Source: an uncultured Clostridia bacterium (GTDB lineage: Bacteria; Bacillota; Clostridia; Oscillospirales; Acutalibacteraceae). Taken from it: DNA of 64,000 nt. Each line of letters opens with the position of its first letter. Within the stretch, counting starts at the first letter, position 1. The notes below the pieces were generated by a model. That model saw nothing but the letters and a program-made list of their open reading frames with translations, made no database searches and was not told the origin of the DNA. The translations under genes were made by a program, and so were the position numbers. Shown here in pieces: positions 1-5,705 of the stretch. The stretch is taken from contig CAMCPL010000010.1 in assembly GCA_945876745.1 (NCBI GenBank), positions 1-64,000 of the forward strand, in the 5' to 3' direction.

Positions 1-28
1 TAGTTATTATTTGATACAAAAAATATAA
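1..28 (+). pseudogene. 3' end of an IS200-like (RAYT) transposase copy
   Basis: The first 28 bases encode the last residues and stop codon of the transposase found complete to its 3' end at 4381 (ending YYLIQKI). Bases 1-58 match 4354-4411 without a mismatch by my reading, including the palindrome that follows. The window therefore opens inside another copy of the same REP-transposase unit. Whether that copy is intact upstream cannot be seen. Confidence 0.8.
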
Positions 29-30
29 AT

Positions 31-57
31 CAATCATAGAACCGTCCCCTGATTGAC
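31..57 (-). repeat. REP-like palindrome, family A (copy A1)
   Basis: The outer stem is CAATCA/TGATTG and the inner core is TAGAACCGTCCCC, the reverse complement of the core in forward copies. It lies 2 bases after the transposase stop codon and directly before the ribosome binding site of the next gene. It is the same element as A6 at 4384, which follows the other transposase copy. Confidence 0.85.
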
Positions 58-76
58 CCAAGAAAGGATAACTAAT

Positions 77-1126
77 ATGAAGACAATCTTTTTATCTAAA
101 CAAGGTTATTTGTTTAGAATAATAAGCTCTTTACTTCAAATACTAATTTTTTCTCCAATATCATTGATATTGTCATATGTTGTATCATCCATTGTTTTGG
201 AATTTTTCAATACAGATACATTAATTGTTTTCAAAACAGTATTTATAGTGATAAATTTATTATGGCTTTTAAGAAATAGTTTTATTAAATTATCAGATAA
301 TAAGGTATTTTTGTATGATTTTATAGGAAAAAGAAAAATCATTGAACTTGACGAAATTAATTCTTTAAAAATAATCGATTATAAAGATTTAAGAAAGATT
401 GTGTTTAGCCACTCAGGAAACAATCCACTTATTTCAAATGCTTCTGCATTTTTATTACCAATAGGTAAGTTTATTATGTTTAAGAATAAATTTGGTCGTG
501 ATGTTGTTATTGGTGTTTGGAATTATAAAAAATTATATAAGAATCTTCTAATATACAATAACAGCGATTTAGTTTCTTCGGAAATTGGACAATCAAATTA
601 TTGTCAAAACAATAAAAATAATTTTTTGGATAAAAAATATAATTTTATTGTTAAAATGCCTATAAAAAATCATATTATAACCTATTTTAAGCATTTTCCT
701 GAAACTGTTGTAAGACCTTTAATTTTTCTATTATTTATATTTTTTTCATTCAATAGAATAGGGGTTAAAATAAATCCGTTTATATTATTGGGATTGTATT
801 TTATTAATAGTTTAATAACATATTTTCTTATCGTTAGAATAGTTGTTGATACTAAAAATGATACACTAAGACTTAAATTATTTAATGATAACAATATGAA
901 TATTGTTAAAATTGATAATTTAAGTAATCTTGAATATGTCAATTCTGCAAATGAATTAGTTGCTGATGAAAAAGATTTTCAATCTATGATTTGTACGCCG
1001 TATTATAAAAAAAGTTCTGACAATTTGATTGCATTTGAAAATTCAAAGAATATATATGTTGTATTATCAGTAAATAAGCCAGATGAATTGTACAATTTAT
1101 TAAAAAAGTACAAGGTCCAATATTAG
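77..1126 (+). CDS. Unknown four-helix membrane protein bracketed by REP palindromes
   Basis: I do not recognise this 349-residue protein. The ATG at 77 is preceded by AAAGGA at good spacing; the ORF track start at 53 lies inside the palindrome and is unlikely. Two hydrophobic segments lie near residues 10-40 and 45-65, then a soluble stretch of about 150 residues, then two more hydrophobic segments near 210-230 and 235-260 and a soluble tail. That layout of membrane pairs alternating with soluble domains recalls PH-like or STM3941-type membrane proteins, but no family motif is visible. The gene is very AT-rich. It is bracketed by palindromes A1 and A2 whose cores point in opposite directions. 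Its neighbours include immunity-like genes, so a membrane immunity protein is possible; this is inference only. Confidence 0.7.
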   Translation: MKTIFLSKQGYLFRIISSLLQILIFSPISLILSYVVSSIVLEFFNTDTLIVFKTVFIVINLLWLLRNSFIKLSDNKVFLYDFIGKRKIIELDEINSLKIIDYKDLRKIVFSHSGNNPLISNASAFLLPIGKFIMFKNKFGRDVVIGVWNYKKLYKNLLIYNNSDLVSSEIGQSNYCQNNKNNFLDKKYNFIVKMPIKNHIITYFKHFPETVVRPLIFLLFIFFSFNRIGVKINPFILLGLYFINSLITYFLIVRIVVDTKNDTLRLKLFNDNNMNIVKIDNLSNLEYVNSANELVADEKDFQSMICTPYYKKSSDNLIAFENSKNIYVVLSVNKPDELYNLLKKYKVQY

Positions 1127-1130
1127 GAGG

Positions 1131-1159
1131 AACCAATCAAGGGACGGTTCTATGATTGA
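1131..1159 (+). repeat. REP-like palindrome, family A (copy A2)
   Basis: It begins AACCAATCA, has the core AGGGACGGTTCTA and closes with TGATTGA. It starts 4 bases after the stop codon of the 349-residue membrane protein. Its core runs opposite to A1, so the two enclose the gene as an inverted pair. Confidence 0.85.
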
Positions 1160-1166
1160 ATAGAGT

Positions 1167-1190
1167 GAACAGGGAACCGTCCCCTGTGCA
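1167..1190 (-). repeat. REP-like palindrome, family B (copy B1)
   Basis: It has the core GGGAACCGTCCCC and outer arms ACAGG/CCTGT, ending TGTGCA. It lies only 7 bases after A2, so two families abut here. It precedes the Imm11-like gene by about 30 bases. Confidence 0.85.
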
Positions 1191-1221
1191 GTATAGAAAA
1201 AGTTTTTGGAAAAGATAAAAA

Positions 1222-1764
1222 ATGAAATATTATAAACTAATAGCGAACGCTTATTCATGTAAAAATCCATTAGTACTAAAAATAAATTCTGAAGAAAATT
1301 ATTTTGATGAAAAGAACATTTACAAAGATATTGATTTAAAGTGCAATTTGATTAAAGCCTATTCATATTCAGAAAAAAATGACACTATCATTGAGGATTT
1401 TATTGTAAGCAATATTGGATTACCTATTGTTACTGAAAGAGCAAAAGAAGTAATAGAGAAATTATCAATTGGTAATACAGAGTTTATACCTATAAAAGTT
1501 ACTAATATGAACAATATAAGCACAAAATTATATGCGGTACATATAAGAAATCATATAAGTGATGATGCTATAAACTTAGATATATGCAAATGCATTGGTA
1601 ATTCAATTGCTGTTTATGGTTTTTTTGAAGAAAAAATTAATGGAAATGATTTATTCAGATTACAAAAAAATAATTTTGCAATATTTGTTTCACAAAAATT
1701 TGTTCAAGCAGCAAAAAAGAATAAATTAACAGGATTTTCATTTACTGATGTTCGAACTGTCTGA
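1222..1764 (+). CDS. Imm11-like (DUF1629-type) immunity protein
   Basis: This 180-residue cytosolic protein ends in a block (FRLQKNNFAIFVSQKF followed by LTGFSF) that is characteristic of Imm11-type immunity proteins of polymorphic toxin systems. In that family the N-terminal part usually begins with a YYKL motif, as here, and the length of about 180 residues is normal. Such proteins bind and neutralise a cognate toxin domain. No toxin gene is next to it; only RHS/YD-repeat scraps lie nearby at 1923 and 2922. The ATG at 1222 has a weak GGAAAAG upstream. The gene is AT-rich and is enclosed by palindromes B1 and B2. Family assignment is by motif memory; function is inferred. Confidence 0.65.
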   Translation: MKYYKLIANAYSCKNPLVLKINSEENYFDEKNIYKDIDLKCNLIKAYSYSEKNDTIIEDFIVSNIGLPIVTERAKEVIEKLSIGNTEFIPIKVTNMNNISTKLYAVHIRNHISDDAINLDICKCIGNSIAVYGFFEEKINGNDLFRLQKNNFAIFVSQKFVQAAKKNKLTGFSFTDVRTV

Positions 1765-1830
1765 ATTAATGTATATTTGTTAAAAATACACTTCACAATT
1801 TTAATATATGTAAGAAAAGATGTTTCAAAT

Positions 1831-1856
1831 AACACAGGGGACGGTTCCTTGTGCAC
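1831..1856 (+). repeat. REP-like palindrome, family B (copy B2)
   Basis: It reads AACACA, core GGGGACGGTTCC, then TTGTGCAC. It is downstream of the Imm11-like gene, and its core is opposite to that of B1, although the outer flanks (AA on the left, GCA on the right) are the same way round in both. Confidence 0.85.
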
Positions 1857-1894
1857 GTAGACGGGACTATCTATAGGAATTGTAAGAAAATATT

Positions 1895-1920
1895 GAACAC
1901 AGGGAACCGTCCCCTGTGCA
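1895..1920 (-). repeat. REP-like palindrome, family B (copy B3)
   Basis: It has the core GGGAACCGTCCCC between AACACA and CTGTGCA arms. It sits 38 bases after B2 and directly before the first RHS-like fragment. Confidence 0.85.
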
Positions 1921-1922
1921 TT

Positions 1923-2043
1923 CGCCCCTTAACCCCTAATTAGTATGTAACAAGAGACAAGAGTATTGAATACACCCACGGCAATAATACCGCTTCGTAT
2001 TCATATACTACCACCGGTACAGGTGAAAATGAAAAGATTAATG
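1923..2043 (+). pseudogene. RHS/YD-repeat protein fragment, copy 1 (121-bp direct repeat)
   Basis: These 121 bases are identical by my reading to 2922-3042. In one frame they encode part of a YD-repeat-like protein (YTHGNNTASYSYT). Here the sequence is cut at ATTAATG by palindrome B4, whereas the second copy continues. There is no start codon or usable reading frame, so this is a dead fragment. Confidence 0.65.
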
Positions 2044-2070
2044 GAACACAGGGAACCGTCCCCTGTGCAC
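2044..2070 (-). repeat. REP-like palindrome, family B (copy B4)
   Basis: It has the same sequence as B3 and lies exactly at the end of the duplicated RHS fragment, so it marks the junction where that fragment was interrupted. It precedes the 106-residue membrane protein gene. Confidence 0.85.
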
Positions 2071-2113
2071 GTGCATATAATTGGTATCTTGGTATGTAAT
2101 GGAGATGAAATAA

Positions 2114-2434
2114 ATGAAAAAAGAATTTGATTATAATGTAAGTCCGTTAGCTATTGCCATAGTAGCAACAATTCTCACGCTCTTAGATGCGATATTTTCA
2201 GATTTTGGAAGGGCACGTTTGATCTATCGTGGATTTGGAAGAGGTGAATTATGCGGAACGGCTTTCATAATTGGATTTTTAGTTGTAACGATTTTTTATA
2301 AAGGATATCGTCAGTACGTTTGGACTAAAAAAGGACTGATTACACTTTTTGTCGCATTAGCAATAAATCTTGCCATAGCAATTTACTGCATAATAAATCA
2401 TTATAATCTTTATGGCTATTTCGGAATTATATAA
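2114..2434 (+). CDS. Small three-helix membrane protein of unknown function
   Basis: This 106-residue protein has three hydrophobic segments near residues 10-30, 48-65 and 78-98. A glycine/arginine-rich loop (RGFGRGELCG) follows the first. No family is recognised. The ATG at 2114 has a GGAG about 10 bases upstream. It follows palindrome B4 and, like the other cargo genes here, is AT-rich. Because it lies among immunity-like genes and RHS fragments, a membrane-bound immunity role is possible but unsupported by any motif. Confidence 0.6.
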   Translation: MKKEFDYNVSPLAIAIVATILTLLDAIFSDFGRARLIYRGFGRGELCGTAFIIGFLVVTIFYKGYRQYVWTKKGLITLFVALAINLAIAIYCIINHYNLYGYFGII

Positions 2435-2538
2435 CAAAAAAGATTAGAGGACTAATCAATGAATGGTATCTTGTGTTGATGAAAAAAGGCATAACACACC
2501 CTCTCCCTTTTAACGGATAAACGCTATAATTTACTAAT

Positions 2539-2567
2539 ACAACGGCAAGGGAAATCCTTGCCGTTGT
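2539..2567. terminator. Strong hairpin between convergent genes
   Basis: A perfect 12-bp stem (ACAACGGCAAGG with its complement) encloses a 5-base loop. It lies between the 106-residue gene on the plus strand and the NlpC/P60 remnant on the minus strand. No long T-run follows on either side, so termination is likely but not certain. Confidence 0.55.
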
Positions 2568-2572
2568 GTGGT

Positions 2573-2710
2573 TTATGAAATAAGGCTTTTATTGTTTTCC
2601 CAACCCCAAGCAAAGCCGTTAAAGCCTTCGTTCCAGCTTTCAAGGGATTGTACCTTTACTGTGCCTGAGAGGTTGTGTATTACCTGTCCGTTACCGATAT
2701 AGATGCCGAC
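2573..2710 (-). pseudogene. C-terminal fragment of an NlpC/P60-type protein
   Basis: About 45 codons on the minus strand read GIYIGNGQVIHNL, then SLESW, then GFAWGWEN and a stop. This resembles the last part of an NlpC/P60 cell-wall peptidase domain, including the histidine-containing strand. The catalytic cysteine half is missing. The upstream end, at 2710, is exactly where the duplicated rimP-upstream sequence begins, so the longer ORF in the track is a chimera. It is a remnant, not a working enzyme. Confidence 0.55.
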
Positions 2711-2872
2711 CCCTACAAAAATCTTTCTTATTTGTGGGCTTTGCGAGCCTTTGAATCTCTCCACCGCAAGGAGTTCCCCTGTCTTTGACAAGAGAGGATT
2801 GTTTATTATAGTGTGTTGTTGCAATAAATAGTAAAATTTCTCTTGACAAATGCATATTATAATATATAATAA
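2710..2872 (+). repeat. Duplicate of the rimP upstream region, copy 1
   Basis: This segment matches 5544-5705 with scattered mismatches and one indel, and includes the complete promoter. It is cut at TATAATAA by palindrome A3. The rimP copy looks functional, so this one is probably the displaced duplicate. Confidence 0.75.
2843..2870 (+). promoter_or_regulatory. Duplicated promoter, now reading into palindrome A3
   Basis: TTGACA (2843-2848) is separated by 16 bases from TATAAT (2865-2870), the same as the rimP promoter. Transcription from it would enter A3, the RHS fragment and then the transposase copies. Confidence 0.6.
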
Positions 2873-2900
2873 CCAATCAGGGGACGGTTCTCTGATTGAC
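2871..2900 (+). repeat. REP-like palindrome, family A (copy A3)
   Basis: It begins AACCAATCA, has the core GGGGACGGTTCTC and ends TGATTGAC. It is joined directly to the -10 box of the duplicated promoter. Confidence 0.85.
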
Positions 2901-2921
2901 GAAACAAGGGGTGGTTAACTC

Positions 2922-3137
2922 CGCCCCTTAACCCCTAATTAGTATGTAACAAGAGACAAGAGTATTGAATACACCCACGGCAATAATACCGCTTCGTATT
3001 CATATACTACCACCGGTACAGGTGAAAATGAAAAGATTAATGCCGACTCCGTAAAGTATAACAATACCGCTGTTCTTTCATCATCATATACCTATGATGA
3101 TAAAGGCAATGTGCTTATAAAGTCGTACGGTGATAAG
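2922..3137 (+). pseudogene. RHS/YD-repeat protein fragment, copy 2
   Basis: In the frame starting at 2943 the sequence encodes YTHGNNTASYSYT, later SSYTYDDKGNVLIKSYGDKN. The YTYDDKGNVL stretch is a classic YD-repeat. The frame has no start and an upstream stop, and runs straight into palindrome A4 at 3138. It is the remains of a large RHS/YD-repeat surface or toxin-delivery protein. The first 121 bases are shared with 1923-2043. No other open gene occupies 2825-3207. Confidence 0.7.
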
Positions 3138-3167
3138 AACCAATCAGGGGACGGTTCTATGATTGAC
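3138..3167 (+). repeat. REP-like palindrome, family A (copy A4), 5' flank of transposase copy 1
   Basis: It reads AACCAATCA, core GGGGACGGTTCTA, TGATTGAC. It is followed after 40 bases by the transposase start codon and marks the left end of the 427-bp tandem unit. Confidence 0.85.
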
Positions 3168-3207
3168 AAATGCTGAGACTTAGGTTATACTATTATTGGT
3201 GATAGAA

Positions 3208-3564
3208 ATGCCTAGACATGCAAGAAAAAAGAGTAACAGCGGAATATATCATATAATTCTGCGTGGTGTAAACAGACAGCAAATCTTTGAAGACAATGAA
3301 GATTATTATAAATTTTTGCAAGTCGTAGAAGAAAGCAAGGCAATAAGTGGATTTGAACTTTTTGCTTATTGCCTTATGAGTAATCATATTCACTTATTGC
3401 TTAAAGAAATCTAAGAACCAATAGAACAGATAATGAAAAGAATAACAACACGATTTGTTTATTGGTACAATATAAAATATCAGCGCAGCGGACATTTATT
3501 TCAGGATAGATACAAAAGCGAACCTGTGGAAGATGATGCATACTTTTTAACTGTGATAAGATAC
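3208..3564 (+). pseudogene. IS200-like (RAYT-type) transposase, truncated copy 1
   Basis: The gene starts at the ATG at 3208 (MPRHARKK). It shows the Y1 transposase HUH motif SNHIHLLL, is interrupted by an in-frame TAA at 3412-3414, continues in the same frame (PIEQIMKRI) and is cut off at 3564 by palindrome A5. It lacks the last 130 or so residues. The same internal stop is present in copy 2. Confidence 0.8.
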
Positions 3565-3594
3565 AACCAATCAGGGGACGGTTCTCTGATTGAC
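3565..3594 (+). repeat. REP-like palindrome, family A (copy A5), 5' flank of transposase copy 2
   Basis: It has the same sequence as A3 (core GGGGACGGTTCTC). It breaks the reading frame of copy 1 and stands 41 bases before the start codon of copy 2. Confidence 0.85.
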
Positions 3595-3634
3595 AAATGC
3601 TGAGACTTAGGTTATACTATCATTGGTGATAGAA

Positions 3635-4381
3635 ATGCCTAGACAAGCAAGAAAAAAGAGTAACAGCGGGATATATCATATAATTCTGCGTGGTGTAAAC
3701 AGACAGCAAATCTTTGAAGACAATGAAGATTATTATAAATTTTTGCAAGTCGTAGAAGAAAGCAAGGCAATAAGTGGATTTGAACTTTTTGCTTATTGCC
3801 TTATGAGTAATCATATTCACTTATTGCTTAAAGAAATCTAAGAACCAATAGAACAGATAATGAAAAGAATAACAACACGATTTGTTTATTGGTACAATAT
3901 AAAATATCAGCGCAGCGGACATTTATTTCAGGATAGATACAAAAGCGAACCTGTGGAAGATGATGCATACTTTTTAACTGTGATAAGATATATTCATCAA
4001 AATCCGGTAAATGCAGAGATATGCAAAAACCCAAAAAACTACTCTTTTAGCAGTTATAACGAATATTTCAAAACAACGACATTTGTTGATTGCAATTATG
4101 TTTTCGCAATAATAAAAAAAGACGATTTTATCAAACTTCACAAACAAAAAGTATCGGAACAATGTTTGGAAATTGAGGATAAATCGAAAGTTAGGGTAAC
4201 TGACGAGCAAGCACAGAAAATAATTGAAAAATATTCAAAATGTAAAAATGCAACTGAATTTCAGGCATTGGACATAAAGTTAAGAAATAAATGCTTAAAA
4301 AAGTTTAAGGAAAGCGGTCTATCTATACGGCAAATTAGTAGGTTGACAGGGGTTAGTTATTATTTGATACAAAAAATATAA
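3635..4381 (+). pseudogene. IS200-like (RAYT-type) transposase with in-frame stop, copy 2
   Basis: The predicted protein is a Y1-family HUH transposase: an N-terminal RGVNRQQIF segment, the metal-binding HUH pair in SNHIHLLL near residue 60, then RYIHQNPV, and a C-terminal helix-turn-helix-like region (SIRQISRLTGVSYYLIQKI) typical of REP-associated tyrosine transposases. A TAA at 3839-3841 splits it into the two ORFs of the track, which are in the same frame with 18 bases between them. The catalytic tyrosine probably lies in the second half (near FVYWYN or the later YRSE-type region), which I cannot fix. It is flanked by palindromes with opposite cores, A5 and A6, as in REP-RAYT units of other bacteria. 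It is probably inactive unless the stop is read through. Confidence 0.8.
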
Positions 4382-4383
4382 AT

Positions 4384-4410
4384 CAATCATAGAACCGTCC
4401 CCTGATTGAC
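4384..4410 (-). repeat. REP-like palindrome, family A (copy A6), 3' flank of transposase copy 2
   Basis: It is identical to A1 and inverted in its core relative to A5. It begins 2 bases after the transposase stop codon. Confidence 0.85.
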
Positions 4411-4411
4411 C

Positions 4412-4516
4412 TTGCGATTATATCGCAAAGTGAAATACGCCGTTGGCGTGTTGAGGTTTGTTTGATTATATATTGCGGGAGGTCGAGGACGGTGCAGGTG
4501 AGATTATCCCCTACAA
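4412..4516 (+). repeat. 105-bp direct repeat, copy 1
   Basis: It matches 5448-5552 with one difference noticed (TATATCG versus TACATCG). It contains a short hairpin (TTGCGAT with ATCGCAA) at its left end and the string GGGAGGTCGAGGACGGTGC. It has no coding content that I can support. Confidence 0.8.
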
Positions 4517-4750
4517 GTCCGTTACAGTAAGGCAACCGTAGGGGTCGGCGGTCTCGCCTGCCGGCTCGGTCGGTGCTTCTGCATAAAAATGCAGAGGTGT
4601 CCACCGGACACCCGCACCCCTGACGACCCGTTAGGATATCGTATCGGCGGACGATTGATAATCGTCCCTACGGTAGTTTGAACATTTACAGTGTCGTTTC
4701 ATTTGTGCGACATCTCGTAGCGACGAGCATTGCTCGTCATAAAAATAAGT
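4517..4750 (+). other. Non-coding stretch packed with short hairpins
   Basis: No gene is visible. At least four short perfect inverted repeats occur: TCTGCAT/ATGCAGA (4578-4595), GTGTCC/GGACAC (4597-4611), GGACGATT/AATCGTCC (4649-4667) and GACGAGCA/TGCTCGTC (4722-4738). The stretch is more GC-rich than the genes around it. It looks like accumulated small palindromic elements of another type. Confidence 0.6.
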
Positions 4751-4775
4751 AACACAGGGGACGGTCCCCTGTGCA
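4751..4775 (+). repeat. REP-like palindrome, family B (copy B5)
   Basis: This is the most perfect member: CACAGGGGAC and GTCCCCTGTG arms around a single G. It lies 21 bases before the SUFU-like start codon. Confidence 0.85.
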
Positions 4776-4795
4776 GTCTGAAAGAGAGGATTTAT

Positions 4796-5362
4796 ATGAA
4801 CCCAAAGAATAAAATAATCGCTAAAAATGTGTTTCAAATATTCAAAACACAGCCTAAAGTTTTTAAATACGGAAATGACGATAATACAAAAACTGTGGAC
4901 ATTGTAATTTGCGACAACAGTCCGTATGATGGTGTTAGTTCATATTCTACAATAGGATTGTATAATACAAATATAGGATTGAGTAGCAATGATAAACCGA
5001 TAAGAACTGAGATTTTAGGAGCTTGTGATATGCAAATAGAAGAGTTTGAAAACATTATTTCAACGGTTGCATTTGAAATAATGGATAGACAATGCGCATA
5101 TCCGGGTTTTGTTATTGATAATATTGTATCGATGTATATCGGTAATAGTGATATGAAACATTTGTTATTGACATATCCGTTTTTATGGGATAATACCAAC
5201 TCGATGAATTTTGATGATTTTACTCTTGCTTTCTTAATGTTAATACCTATTTCCGAAAGAGAAAAGGAGTATTGTAATGAAAACGGATTAGATGCATTAG
5301 AAACTATTTTTGAAGAATATCAAATTGATGTGTTTGACATTTATAGAAAAAGCGTTTTATAA
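4796..5362 (+). CDS. SUFU-family (suppressor of fused-like) immunity protein
   Basis: This 188-residue protein has the pattern of bacterial SUFU-domain proteins: VDIVICDN and YSTIGL near residues 35-55, RTEILGAC near 75, then a hydrophobic FLMLIPISEREKEY and a C-terminal DALETIFEE segment. Bacterial SUFU proteins are commonly immunity proteins in polymorphic toxin loci. The start is the ATG at 4796 with GAGAGGA upstream; the track's start at 4730 lies before palindrome B5 and is not credible. The gene stands alone and is AT-rich between palindromes B5 and B6, with no toxin beside it. The immunity role is inferred from the family and from the nearby Imm11-like gene and RHS scraps. Confidence 0.7.
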   Translation: MNPKNKIIAKNVFQIFKTQPKVFKYGNDDNTKTVDIVICDNSPYDGVSSYSTIGLYNTNIGLSSNDKPIRTEILGACDMQIEEFENIISTVAFEIMDRQCAYPGFVIDNIVSMYIGNSDMKHLLLTYPFLWDNTNSMNFDDFTLAFLMLIPISEREKEYCNENGLDALETIFEEYQIDVFDIYRKSVL

Positions 5363-5378
5363 TTATTGCTTTTGAAAT

Positions 5379-5403
5379 GCACAGGGGACGGTGCCTTGTG
5401 TTC
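5379..5403 (-). repeat. REP-like palindrome, family B (copy B6)
   Basis: It reads GCACA, GGGGACGGTGCC, TTGTGTTC. The outer flank is reversed compared with B5 (GCA is on the left, AA-complement on the right). It lies 16 bases after the SUFU-like stop codon, so the gene is bracketed by an inverted pair when the flanks are compared. Confidence 0.8.
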
Positions 5404-5447: not shown

Positions 5448-5552
5448 TTGCGATTACATCGCAAAGTGAAATACGCCGTTGGCGTGTTGAGGTTTGTTTG
5501 ATTATATATTGCGGGAGGTCGAGGACGGTGCAGGTGAGATTATCCCCTACAA
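5448..5552 (+). repeat. 105-bp direct repeat, copy 2
   Basis: It is the partner of 4412-4516. Here it runs directly into the rimP upstream repeat at 5544. The whole stretch 5363-5776 has no gene; it holds palindrome B6, this repeat, the rimP promoter and its leader hairpin. Confidence 0.8.
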
Positions 5553-5705
5553 AAATCTCTCTTATCTGCGGGCTTTGCGAGCCTTTGAATCTCTCCACTG
5601 CAAGCGGCTCCCTCTCTTTGACAATAGAGGATTGTTTATTATAGTGCGTTGTTGCAATAAATAGTAAAATTTCTCTTGACAAATGCATATTATAATATAT
5701 AATAA
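5544..5705 (+). repeat. rimP upstream region, partner of the duplicate at 2710
   Basis: It matches 2710-2872 at roughly nine bases in ten. It carries the promoter that would drive the rimP operon and is probably the original copy. Confidence 0.75.
5676..5703 (+). promoter_or_regulatory. Promoter of the rimP-nusA-infB operon
   Basis: Consensus TTGACA (5676-5681) and TATAAT (5698-5703) are 16 bases apart. Transcription would start near 5710, leaving a leader of about 65 bases that contains the hairpin at 5729. Confidence 0.75.

What the first reader, a model, noticed from the sequence alone, without database searches (positions are those of the whole stretch)
31..5403. REP-like palindromes bracket orphan immunity-like genes beside an IS200-type transposase
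Twelve copies of a palindrome with the core GGGGACGGTTC occur in 5.4 kb and none were noticed beyond. They stand at gene boundaries: A1 and A2 around the 349-residue membrane protein, B1 and B2 around the Imm11-like gene, B5 and B6 around the SUFU-like gene, and A5 and A6 around the transposase. The pairs lie 2-40 bases from the genes. REP-RAYT units are established in other bacteria, where the palindrome is moved in trans. What looks new is that small immunity-like genes seem to be carried between the palindromes, as if the pair were a minimal mobile cassette. That step is inference.
Basis: partly seen in the sequence, partly recalled or inferred. Interest (0 to 1): 0.8.

Follow-up and report, generated by a model that had tools for sequence, protein, structure and literature searches.

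The report
Scattered transposon hairpins in an immunity-gene graveyard
The repeated hairpins are real and belong to a known kind of small mobile DNA moved by a RAYT-type enzyme; they have settled in the gaps between leftover toxin-immunity genes, and the evidence is against their carrying those genes as mobile cassettes.

Summary
Twelve palindromes lie in window 31-5403 (chance 0.38), beside a Y1 (RAYT-type) transposase and Imm11- and SUFU-like genes. The cassette interpretation does not hold up. The core is scattered: 37 exact copies in this genome, 28 outside the window. It is enriched across the phylum in genomes that carry the same RAYT clade. Most dispersed copies are 90-bp inverted doublets beside housekeeping genes, present in one species and absent in its relative.

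The hairpin apex (GGGGA-CGG-TTC) is fixed. The stem arms vary and covary. This matches the published TIRYT/TIRtron elements (motif GGGGWSAS).

Evidence against cargo:
(1) the only other Imm11 gene in the genus stands next to a SUFU homologue with no palindrome;
(2) palindromes in the orientation that brackets RAYT (+...-) enclose a non-RAYT gene once in 23 pairs, whereas 20 of 21 bracketed genes lie in other orientations;
(3) palindrome positions are not conserved around a shared orphan gene, and in one species a palindrome cuts off the gene's 3' end;
(4) the genomes richest in RHS modules have no core.

Both transposase copies here share a nonsense codon. What remains interesting is that, where cores and RHS modules coexist, they are adjacent in 6 of 10 congeners.

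The parts
1..58 (+). 3' end of a further RAYT copy, identical to 4354-4411, with palindrome A1 (30-55, - orientation); the contig begins here
77..1126 (+). 349-aa membrane protein, no Pfam or NCBIfam family
1134..1190 (.). palindromes A2 (1134-1159, +) and B1 (1165-1190, -): short inverted doublet in the gap between two genes
1222..1764 (+). Imm11-family immunity-like gene
   Evidence: (PF07791, E 3.2e-15)
1833..1920 (.). palindromes B2 (+) and B3 (-): inverted doublet; the spacer end recurs in sister genome G458 (L169)
1923..2043 (+). 121-nt RHS/YD-repeat fragment (..YTHGNNTASYSYTTTGTGENEKIN), relic
2045..2070 (-). palindrome B4 at the 3' joint of the RHS fragment; same joint in C7 (twice) and G458:C44
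2114..2434 (+). 106-aa membrane protein, immunity-like by context only
2874..3137 (+). palindrome A3 (2874-2899) + leader (GACGAAACAAGGGGTGG..CCGCCCCTTAACCCC) + longer RHS fragment
3141..3563 (+). palindrome A4 + truncated RAYT copy 1 (TAA at 3412-3414); first unit of a 427-bp tandem duplication
3568..4408 (+). RAYT unit: palindrome A5 (+), Y1 transposase pseudogene copy 2 (3623-4381, TAA at 3839-3841), palindrome A6 (-)
4753..4775 (+). palindrome B5
4796..5362 (+). SUFU-domain gene (immunity-like)
   Evidence: PF05076, E 5.2e-23
5378..5403 (+). palindrome B6, same orientation as B5

Best explanation
The palindromes are the terminal and stand-alone hairpins of a TIRYT/RAYT-type (Y1 HUH) transposable element. 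The intact element is palindrome(+)-transposase-palindrome(-), about 0.85 kb. Non-autonomous inverted doublets (+...-) of the same hairpins spread through intergenic DNA, as REPINs do. In single strands they fold with a fixed apex (GGGGA-CGG-TTC) that the transposase presumably recognises, on variable self-complementary arms. The 5.4-kb region is a decayed RHS/polymorphic-toxin array: RHS core fragments and orphan immunity genes. It tolerates insertions, so hairpins settled in its gaps. Some were later copied together with adjoining RHS fragments by duplication or homologous recombination. Genes look bracketed because the gaps between them hold hairpins, not because hairpin pairs carry them. 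Here the transposase is broken, so these are largely fossils. Shown: scatter, RAYT linkage, hairpin covariation, doublet polymorphism, orientation, nonsense codons, RHS fragments. Inferred: recognition of the apex, and insertion followed by co-duplication.
For: Scatter: 37 exact cores, reversed control 0. Phylum sample: 73 of 94 genomes with at least 8 cores carry the RAYT clade, against 46 of 305 others (Fisher p 3e-29). RAYT bounded by hairpins in 24 of 29 loci of other genera. Covariation of the arms: z 3.0 at the innermost pair and 5.7-11 at the next six, 117 palindromes; 36 arm types, z 4.5-5.3; hairpins fold. About 125-bp doublets with conserved spacer; a doublet in G457 is absent at the orthologous own site, another is shared. 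Orientation: '+-' encloses RAYT 4, nothing 18, a non-RAYT gene 1; non-RAYT genes lie in -+ (9), ++ (6), -- (5). RHS relics. Imm11-SUFU without palindromes in G400 = Clostridium sp. CAG:678. Shared nonsense codon.
Against: Insertion-tolerant space alone does not obviously explain why, in congeners with few cores, the core lies within about 1.1 kb of an RHS module in 6 of 10 genomes that have both, often as [palindrome + leader] directly ahead of successive modules. Recognition of the apex by the transposase was not tested. No orthologous filled/empty pair exists for the window's own sites because the contig ends there.
Confidence: 0.75

Rival explanations
1. One reading: a pair of palindromes plus the enclosed immunity gene is a minimal cassette moved in trans by the transposase.
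For: Genes in window, G404, G410, G433, G445 and G467 loci stand tightly between palindromes. In G433 the homology of a 141-aa orphan gene to G441 runs only between the two palindromes.
Against: Orientation is the reverse of, or unrelated to, the RAYT unit. Palindrome positions differ around the same gene: in G433 the palindrome cuts off the last residues (match 1-130 of 141) and in G441 the nearest one lies about 50 nt further on. Imm11-SUFU in G400 has none. Cores are mostly elsewhere.
Confidence: 0.07
2. Palindrome plus leader (50-200 bp, often with RHS core sequence) acts as a dispersed direct repeat at which homologous recombination duplicates, deletes and swaps RHS tip/immunity modules; the palindrome is a recombination joint, not a transposon end.
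For: G459: two modules begin with the same palindrome-leader but join the RHS core at different points. G441: four units of palindrome + short RHS stretch in one direction ahead of different genes. G433: the orphan gene lies between two copies of palindrome + CAAAACGAAAA.CCATAATTT leader. Adjacent to RHS in 6 of 10 congeners with both.
Against: RHS-rich congeners (G471, G474, G426, G432) have no core, so arrays form without it. A simple history of insertion followed by duplication gives the same pattern.
Confidence: 0.15
3. The palindromes are functional RNA elements (terminators or mRNA stabilisers) of the orphan genes, unrelated to transposition.
For: They lie mostly in gaps near gene ends and fold stably.
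Against: They stand equally at 5' and 3' ends and in both orientations; genome numbers follow RAYT; arms are hypervariable while the apex is fixed.
Confidence: 0.03

Closest known systems
TIRtron / TIRYT (Di Nocera et al. 2013, PMC3733652); Y1 transposase subclass 2.1 of PMC6006769, which that paper equates with RAYT group 1 of Bertels et al.
   Same: Y1 HUH transposase bounded by terminal inverted repeats that share GGGGWSAS; repeat copies dispersed as singles, dimers and groups; several RAYTs found here carry GGGGACAG, an exact fit.
   Different: Core here is GGGGACGG (7 of 8). The repeat is a full hairpin with fixed apex and covarying arms. Up to 170 exact cores per genome in this phylum; the 2013 text does not mention Firmicutes or Clostridia, and the 2018 survey found no REP-like sequences near subclass 2.1 genes.
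REPIN / REP-RAYT systems (PMC3116915, PMC2817692)
   Same: Dispersed intergenic inverted hairpin doublets beside a Y1 transposase.
   Different: No GTAG foot; here the apex, not the foot, is conserved.
CGTC-tagged REPs (PMC3733652)
   Same: Contain CGTC on one strand.
   Different: There CGTC is an unpaired tag at one end and no transposase is linked; here it lies in the apex and a transposase is linked.
Orphan rhs / CDI toxin-immunity arrays (PMC3967940, PMC4927057)
   Same: Displaced fragments of the large toxin gene with immunity genes downstream; intervening transposases are reported.
   Different: Here toxins are mostly lost, and short hairpins rather than whole insertion sequences fill the gaps.

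Membership tests
TIRYT/TIRtron (subclass 2.1) | Y1 transposase with HUH and Tyr motifs | tested here: met
   PF01797 over cut-off at both copies, both interrupted by TAA; intact congener copies reach NF047646 REP-associated tyrosine transposase; NHIH and RYIHQNP in sequence
TIRYT/TIRtron (subclass 2.1) | gene bounded by terminal inverted repeats | tested here: met
   3568-3593 (+) and 4383-4408 (-); also G404, G415, G412 and 24 of 29 loci of other genera on at least one side, 11 on both
TIRYT/TIRtron (subclass 2.1) | TIR motif GGGGWSAS | tested here: inconclusive
   GGGGACGG fits 7 of 8; GGGGACAG at several homologues fits fully
TIRYT/TIRtron (subclass 2.1) | C-terminal HTH (HTH_23-like) | tested here: inconclusive
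   HTH_23 E 0.033 at residues 142-171 of the C-terminal ORF, below Pfam cut-off
REPIN/REP | GTAG (or variant) foot beside the hairpin | tested here: not met
   no constant foot in the flanks; base of the stem is the variable part
REPIN/REP | two inverted hairpins with conserved spacer, dispersed | tested here: met
   C-type doublets 90-92 bp apart (core to core) in own, G457, G458; doublet folds as one hairpin, z -8.1
CGTC-REP | unpaired CGTC at one end of the palindrome | tested here: not met
   CGTC lies in the apex
palindrome-bounded gene cassette | same boundaries around the cargo in independent copies | tested here: not met
   G433 against G441; own against G400
palindrome-bounded gene cassette | palindromes in the orientation that brackets the transposase | tested here: not met
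   1 of 21 genes in +- orientation
palindrome-bounded gene cassette | precise empty sites in related strains | tested here: inconclusive
   none found; the window's left flank lies beyond the contig end
orphan RHS immunity array | RHS core fragments plus immunity genes downstream of a full RHS gene | tested here: inconclusive
   fragments and immunity-family genes met; no full RHS gene in this assembly at E 1e-8

The most novel reading that the evidence does not exclude
Palindrome-leader units are active joints of RHS tip/immunity module exchange: RAYT nicking or hairpin-stimulated recombination at the fixed apex promotes duplication, loss and swapping of modules, and this is why palindromes with different arms repeatedly stand ahead of successive orphan modules in different species.
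Probability: 0.15. Interest if true: 0.7.

Novelty: new variant of a known kind. Interest (0 to 1): 0.4.

Why it matters
It turns an apparent gene cassette into a clearer picture: a widespread hairpin family of this phylum with a constant apex and covarying arms, linked to a RAYT clade for which REP-like repeats were reported absent. Its repeated proximity to RHS/immunity arrays makes one question testable: do small hairpin elements help shuffle toxin-immunity modules, or merely settle among them?

Tried and rejected
Cassette model: rejected on orientation, boundaries and the G400 counter-example. CGTC-REP filing: rejected after reading PMC3733652. Empty site at the rimP locus: 29 congener loci have no core within 1.5 kb, but the left flank of the window is missing, so the test is one-sided. 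cinA/tRNA locus of G458 (C44) as an empty site: own C3 carries the decayed RHS-palindrome joint at the same place, so the insertion predates the split. Search for the core string in papers: only unrelated papers. PDB sequence search with an intact RAYT: no hit. Pfam on array genes: mostly no family, so 'immunity-like' rests on context for most of them.

Full report
Observation. The 12 palindromes are at the stated places, far above chance (0.38 expected). The named genes are there: Imm11 (E 3e-15), SUFU (E 5e-23), Y1 transposase. The window is the beginning of a contig, opening inside the 3' end of another transposase copy. Stretches 1923-2043 and 2922-3137 are RHS/YD-repeat fragments (frame 'IEYTHGNNTASYSYTTTGTGENEKI...YTYDDKGN'). 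So the place is a decayed polymorphic-toxin array. No RHS hit at E 1e-8 exists elsewhere in this assembly.

The transposase. Y1 domains occur in this genome only in the window. Both copies contain the same in-frame TAA, after the HUH motif and before the tyrosine. Copy 1 is cut off by a 427-bp tandem duplication that starts with palindrome A5. Intact congener homologues are NF047646 REP-associated tyrosine transposases. The local element is therefore most likely dead; a third copy, cut by the contig end, cannot be judged.

Genome-wide distribution. The exact core occurs 37 times in 1.93 Mb, 28 of them outside the window; the reversed control gives 0. Contexts: most dispersed copies have arms of the type AACCACCAA/TTGTTGGTT and stand as +...- doublets, cores 91-92 bp apart, with a conserved spacer, beside housekeeping genes. 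Sister genomes G457 and G458 carry the same doublets. One G457 doublet after a stop codon is absent at the orthologous own site, and another is shared. In G458 such doublets flank an intact RAYT. The doublet is therefore the unit that varies, as in REPIN systems.

Phylum-wide. In 399 genomes the core is strongly over-represented in many (up to 170 copies). Of 94 genomes with at least 8 cores, 73 carry a RAYT of this clade; of the other 305, 46 do (Fisher p 3e-29). At 29 RAYT loci of other genera, 24 have a GGGGAC[GA]G palindrome within 170 bp: 21 on the 5' side in + and 14 on the 3' side in - orientation, against 0.027 expected per window.

Hairpin. Over 117 distinct palindromes of the genus, left base i pairs with right base i+2. 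For positions 1-6, 75-92% are paired, with all four pair types at position 4. Other registers fall far lower except at single positions. Shuffles give z 3.0 at the innermost pair and 5.7-11 at the next six; with one representative per arm type (36) z is 4.5-5.3. The apex is constant and the arms covary. Canonical REPs instead keep a GTAG foot.

Cassette test. (a) Imm11 occurs in only two of 80 genomes of the genus. In G400 (record Clostridium sp. CAG:678) it is adjacent to a SUFU homologue, with no palindrome and no core in that genome. (b) Pair orientation: +...- encloses RAYT 4 times, nothing 18 times and a non-RAYT gene once. Non-RAYT genes lie in -...+ 9, ++ 6, -- 5. Genes lie between units rather than inside them; pairs within one locus are not independent. 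(c) An orphan 141-residue gene shared by G441 and G433 (79% protein, 88% DNA identity) has palindromes at different positions, with different arms and orientation. In G433 the palindrome removes the end of the gene. (d) The genomes with the most RHS hits (G471 24; G474, G426, G432 8 each) have no core.

What remains unusual. In congeners with few cores, cores and RHS modules are neighbours: G459 (2 of 2), G447 (2 of 2), G429 (70 bp), G434 (2 bp), G446 and G410 (about 1 kb); not in G439, G456, G460, and not located in G475. In G459 two successive modules start with the same palindrome and 70-nt leader, joined to the RHS core at different points. In G441 units of palindrome plus 40-60 nt of RHS core precede different small genes. 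In G447 each of two Amidase_6-type tip modules is preceded by a palindrome. In own and G458 a block [palindrome-leader-RHS fragment-palindrome] recurs with unrelated outer flanks; the copy next to cinA is shared by both species and hence old. I read this as insertion into tolerant, duplication-prone arrays followed by co-duplication; an active joint is possible but unproven. The RHS motif count (9 of 49 clusters that are not C-type, against 0 of 15 C-type and 0 of 58 control loci) used motifs partly chosen after seeing the loci, so it is only supportive.

Known kinds. The closest is the TIRtron/TIRYT class with GGGGWSAS repeats, equal to Y1 subclass 2.1, for which no REP-like sequences were reported. 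Orphan toxin/immunity arrays with intervening transposases are known in CDI loci, and rhs orphans recombine with the main gene. I therefore file this as a new variant of a known kind.

Noticed in passing
window 4412-4641 and G000:C1:465489-465718: 230 bp identical at two places of the genome, directly after the RAYT unit; 5448-5552 and 5610-5705 repeat window 4412-4516 and 2777-2872. The order of parts around 4410 could be an assembly join.
   Followed up: partly
window 2573-2824 (-): Fragment with a weak NlpC/P60 match; related DNA occurs in several congeners (G456, G474, G477).
   Followed up: no
L168 (G458:C6), RAYT 1523-2296: Intact RAYT flanked by C-type doublets in the sister species. 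The own genome has C-type doublets but no such RAYT, so they are orphaned here.
   Followed up: partly
window 2900-2945; L059, L178, L224: The leader after the palindrome contains a second inverted repeat (AAGGGGTGG...CCGCCCCTT) and is shared by own, G458 and G459 although the RHS sequence that follows differs.
   Followed up: partly
L158, L163, L164: A few palindromes look chimeric: left and right arm each match different palindrome types of the same locus (e.g. GGTACA...TGTGTT), as if arms recombine at the core.
   Followed up: no
L178 1-44; contig ends of G457, G459: Contigs of several congener assemblies end in what looks like a Nextera adapter (AGATGTGTATAAGAGACAG), an artefact.
   Followed up: no
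L172 (G447:C10): Two tandem RHS tip modules with Amidase_6 domains and lipoprotein-like partners, closed by a third palindrome.
   Followed up: partly
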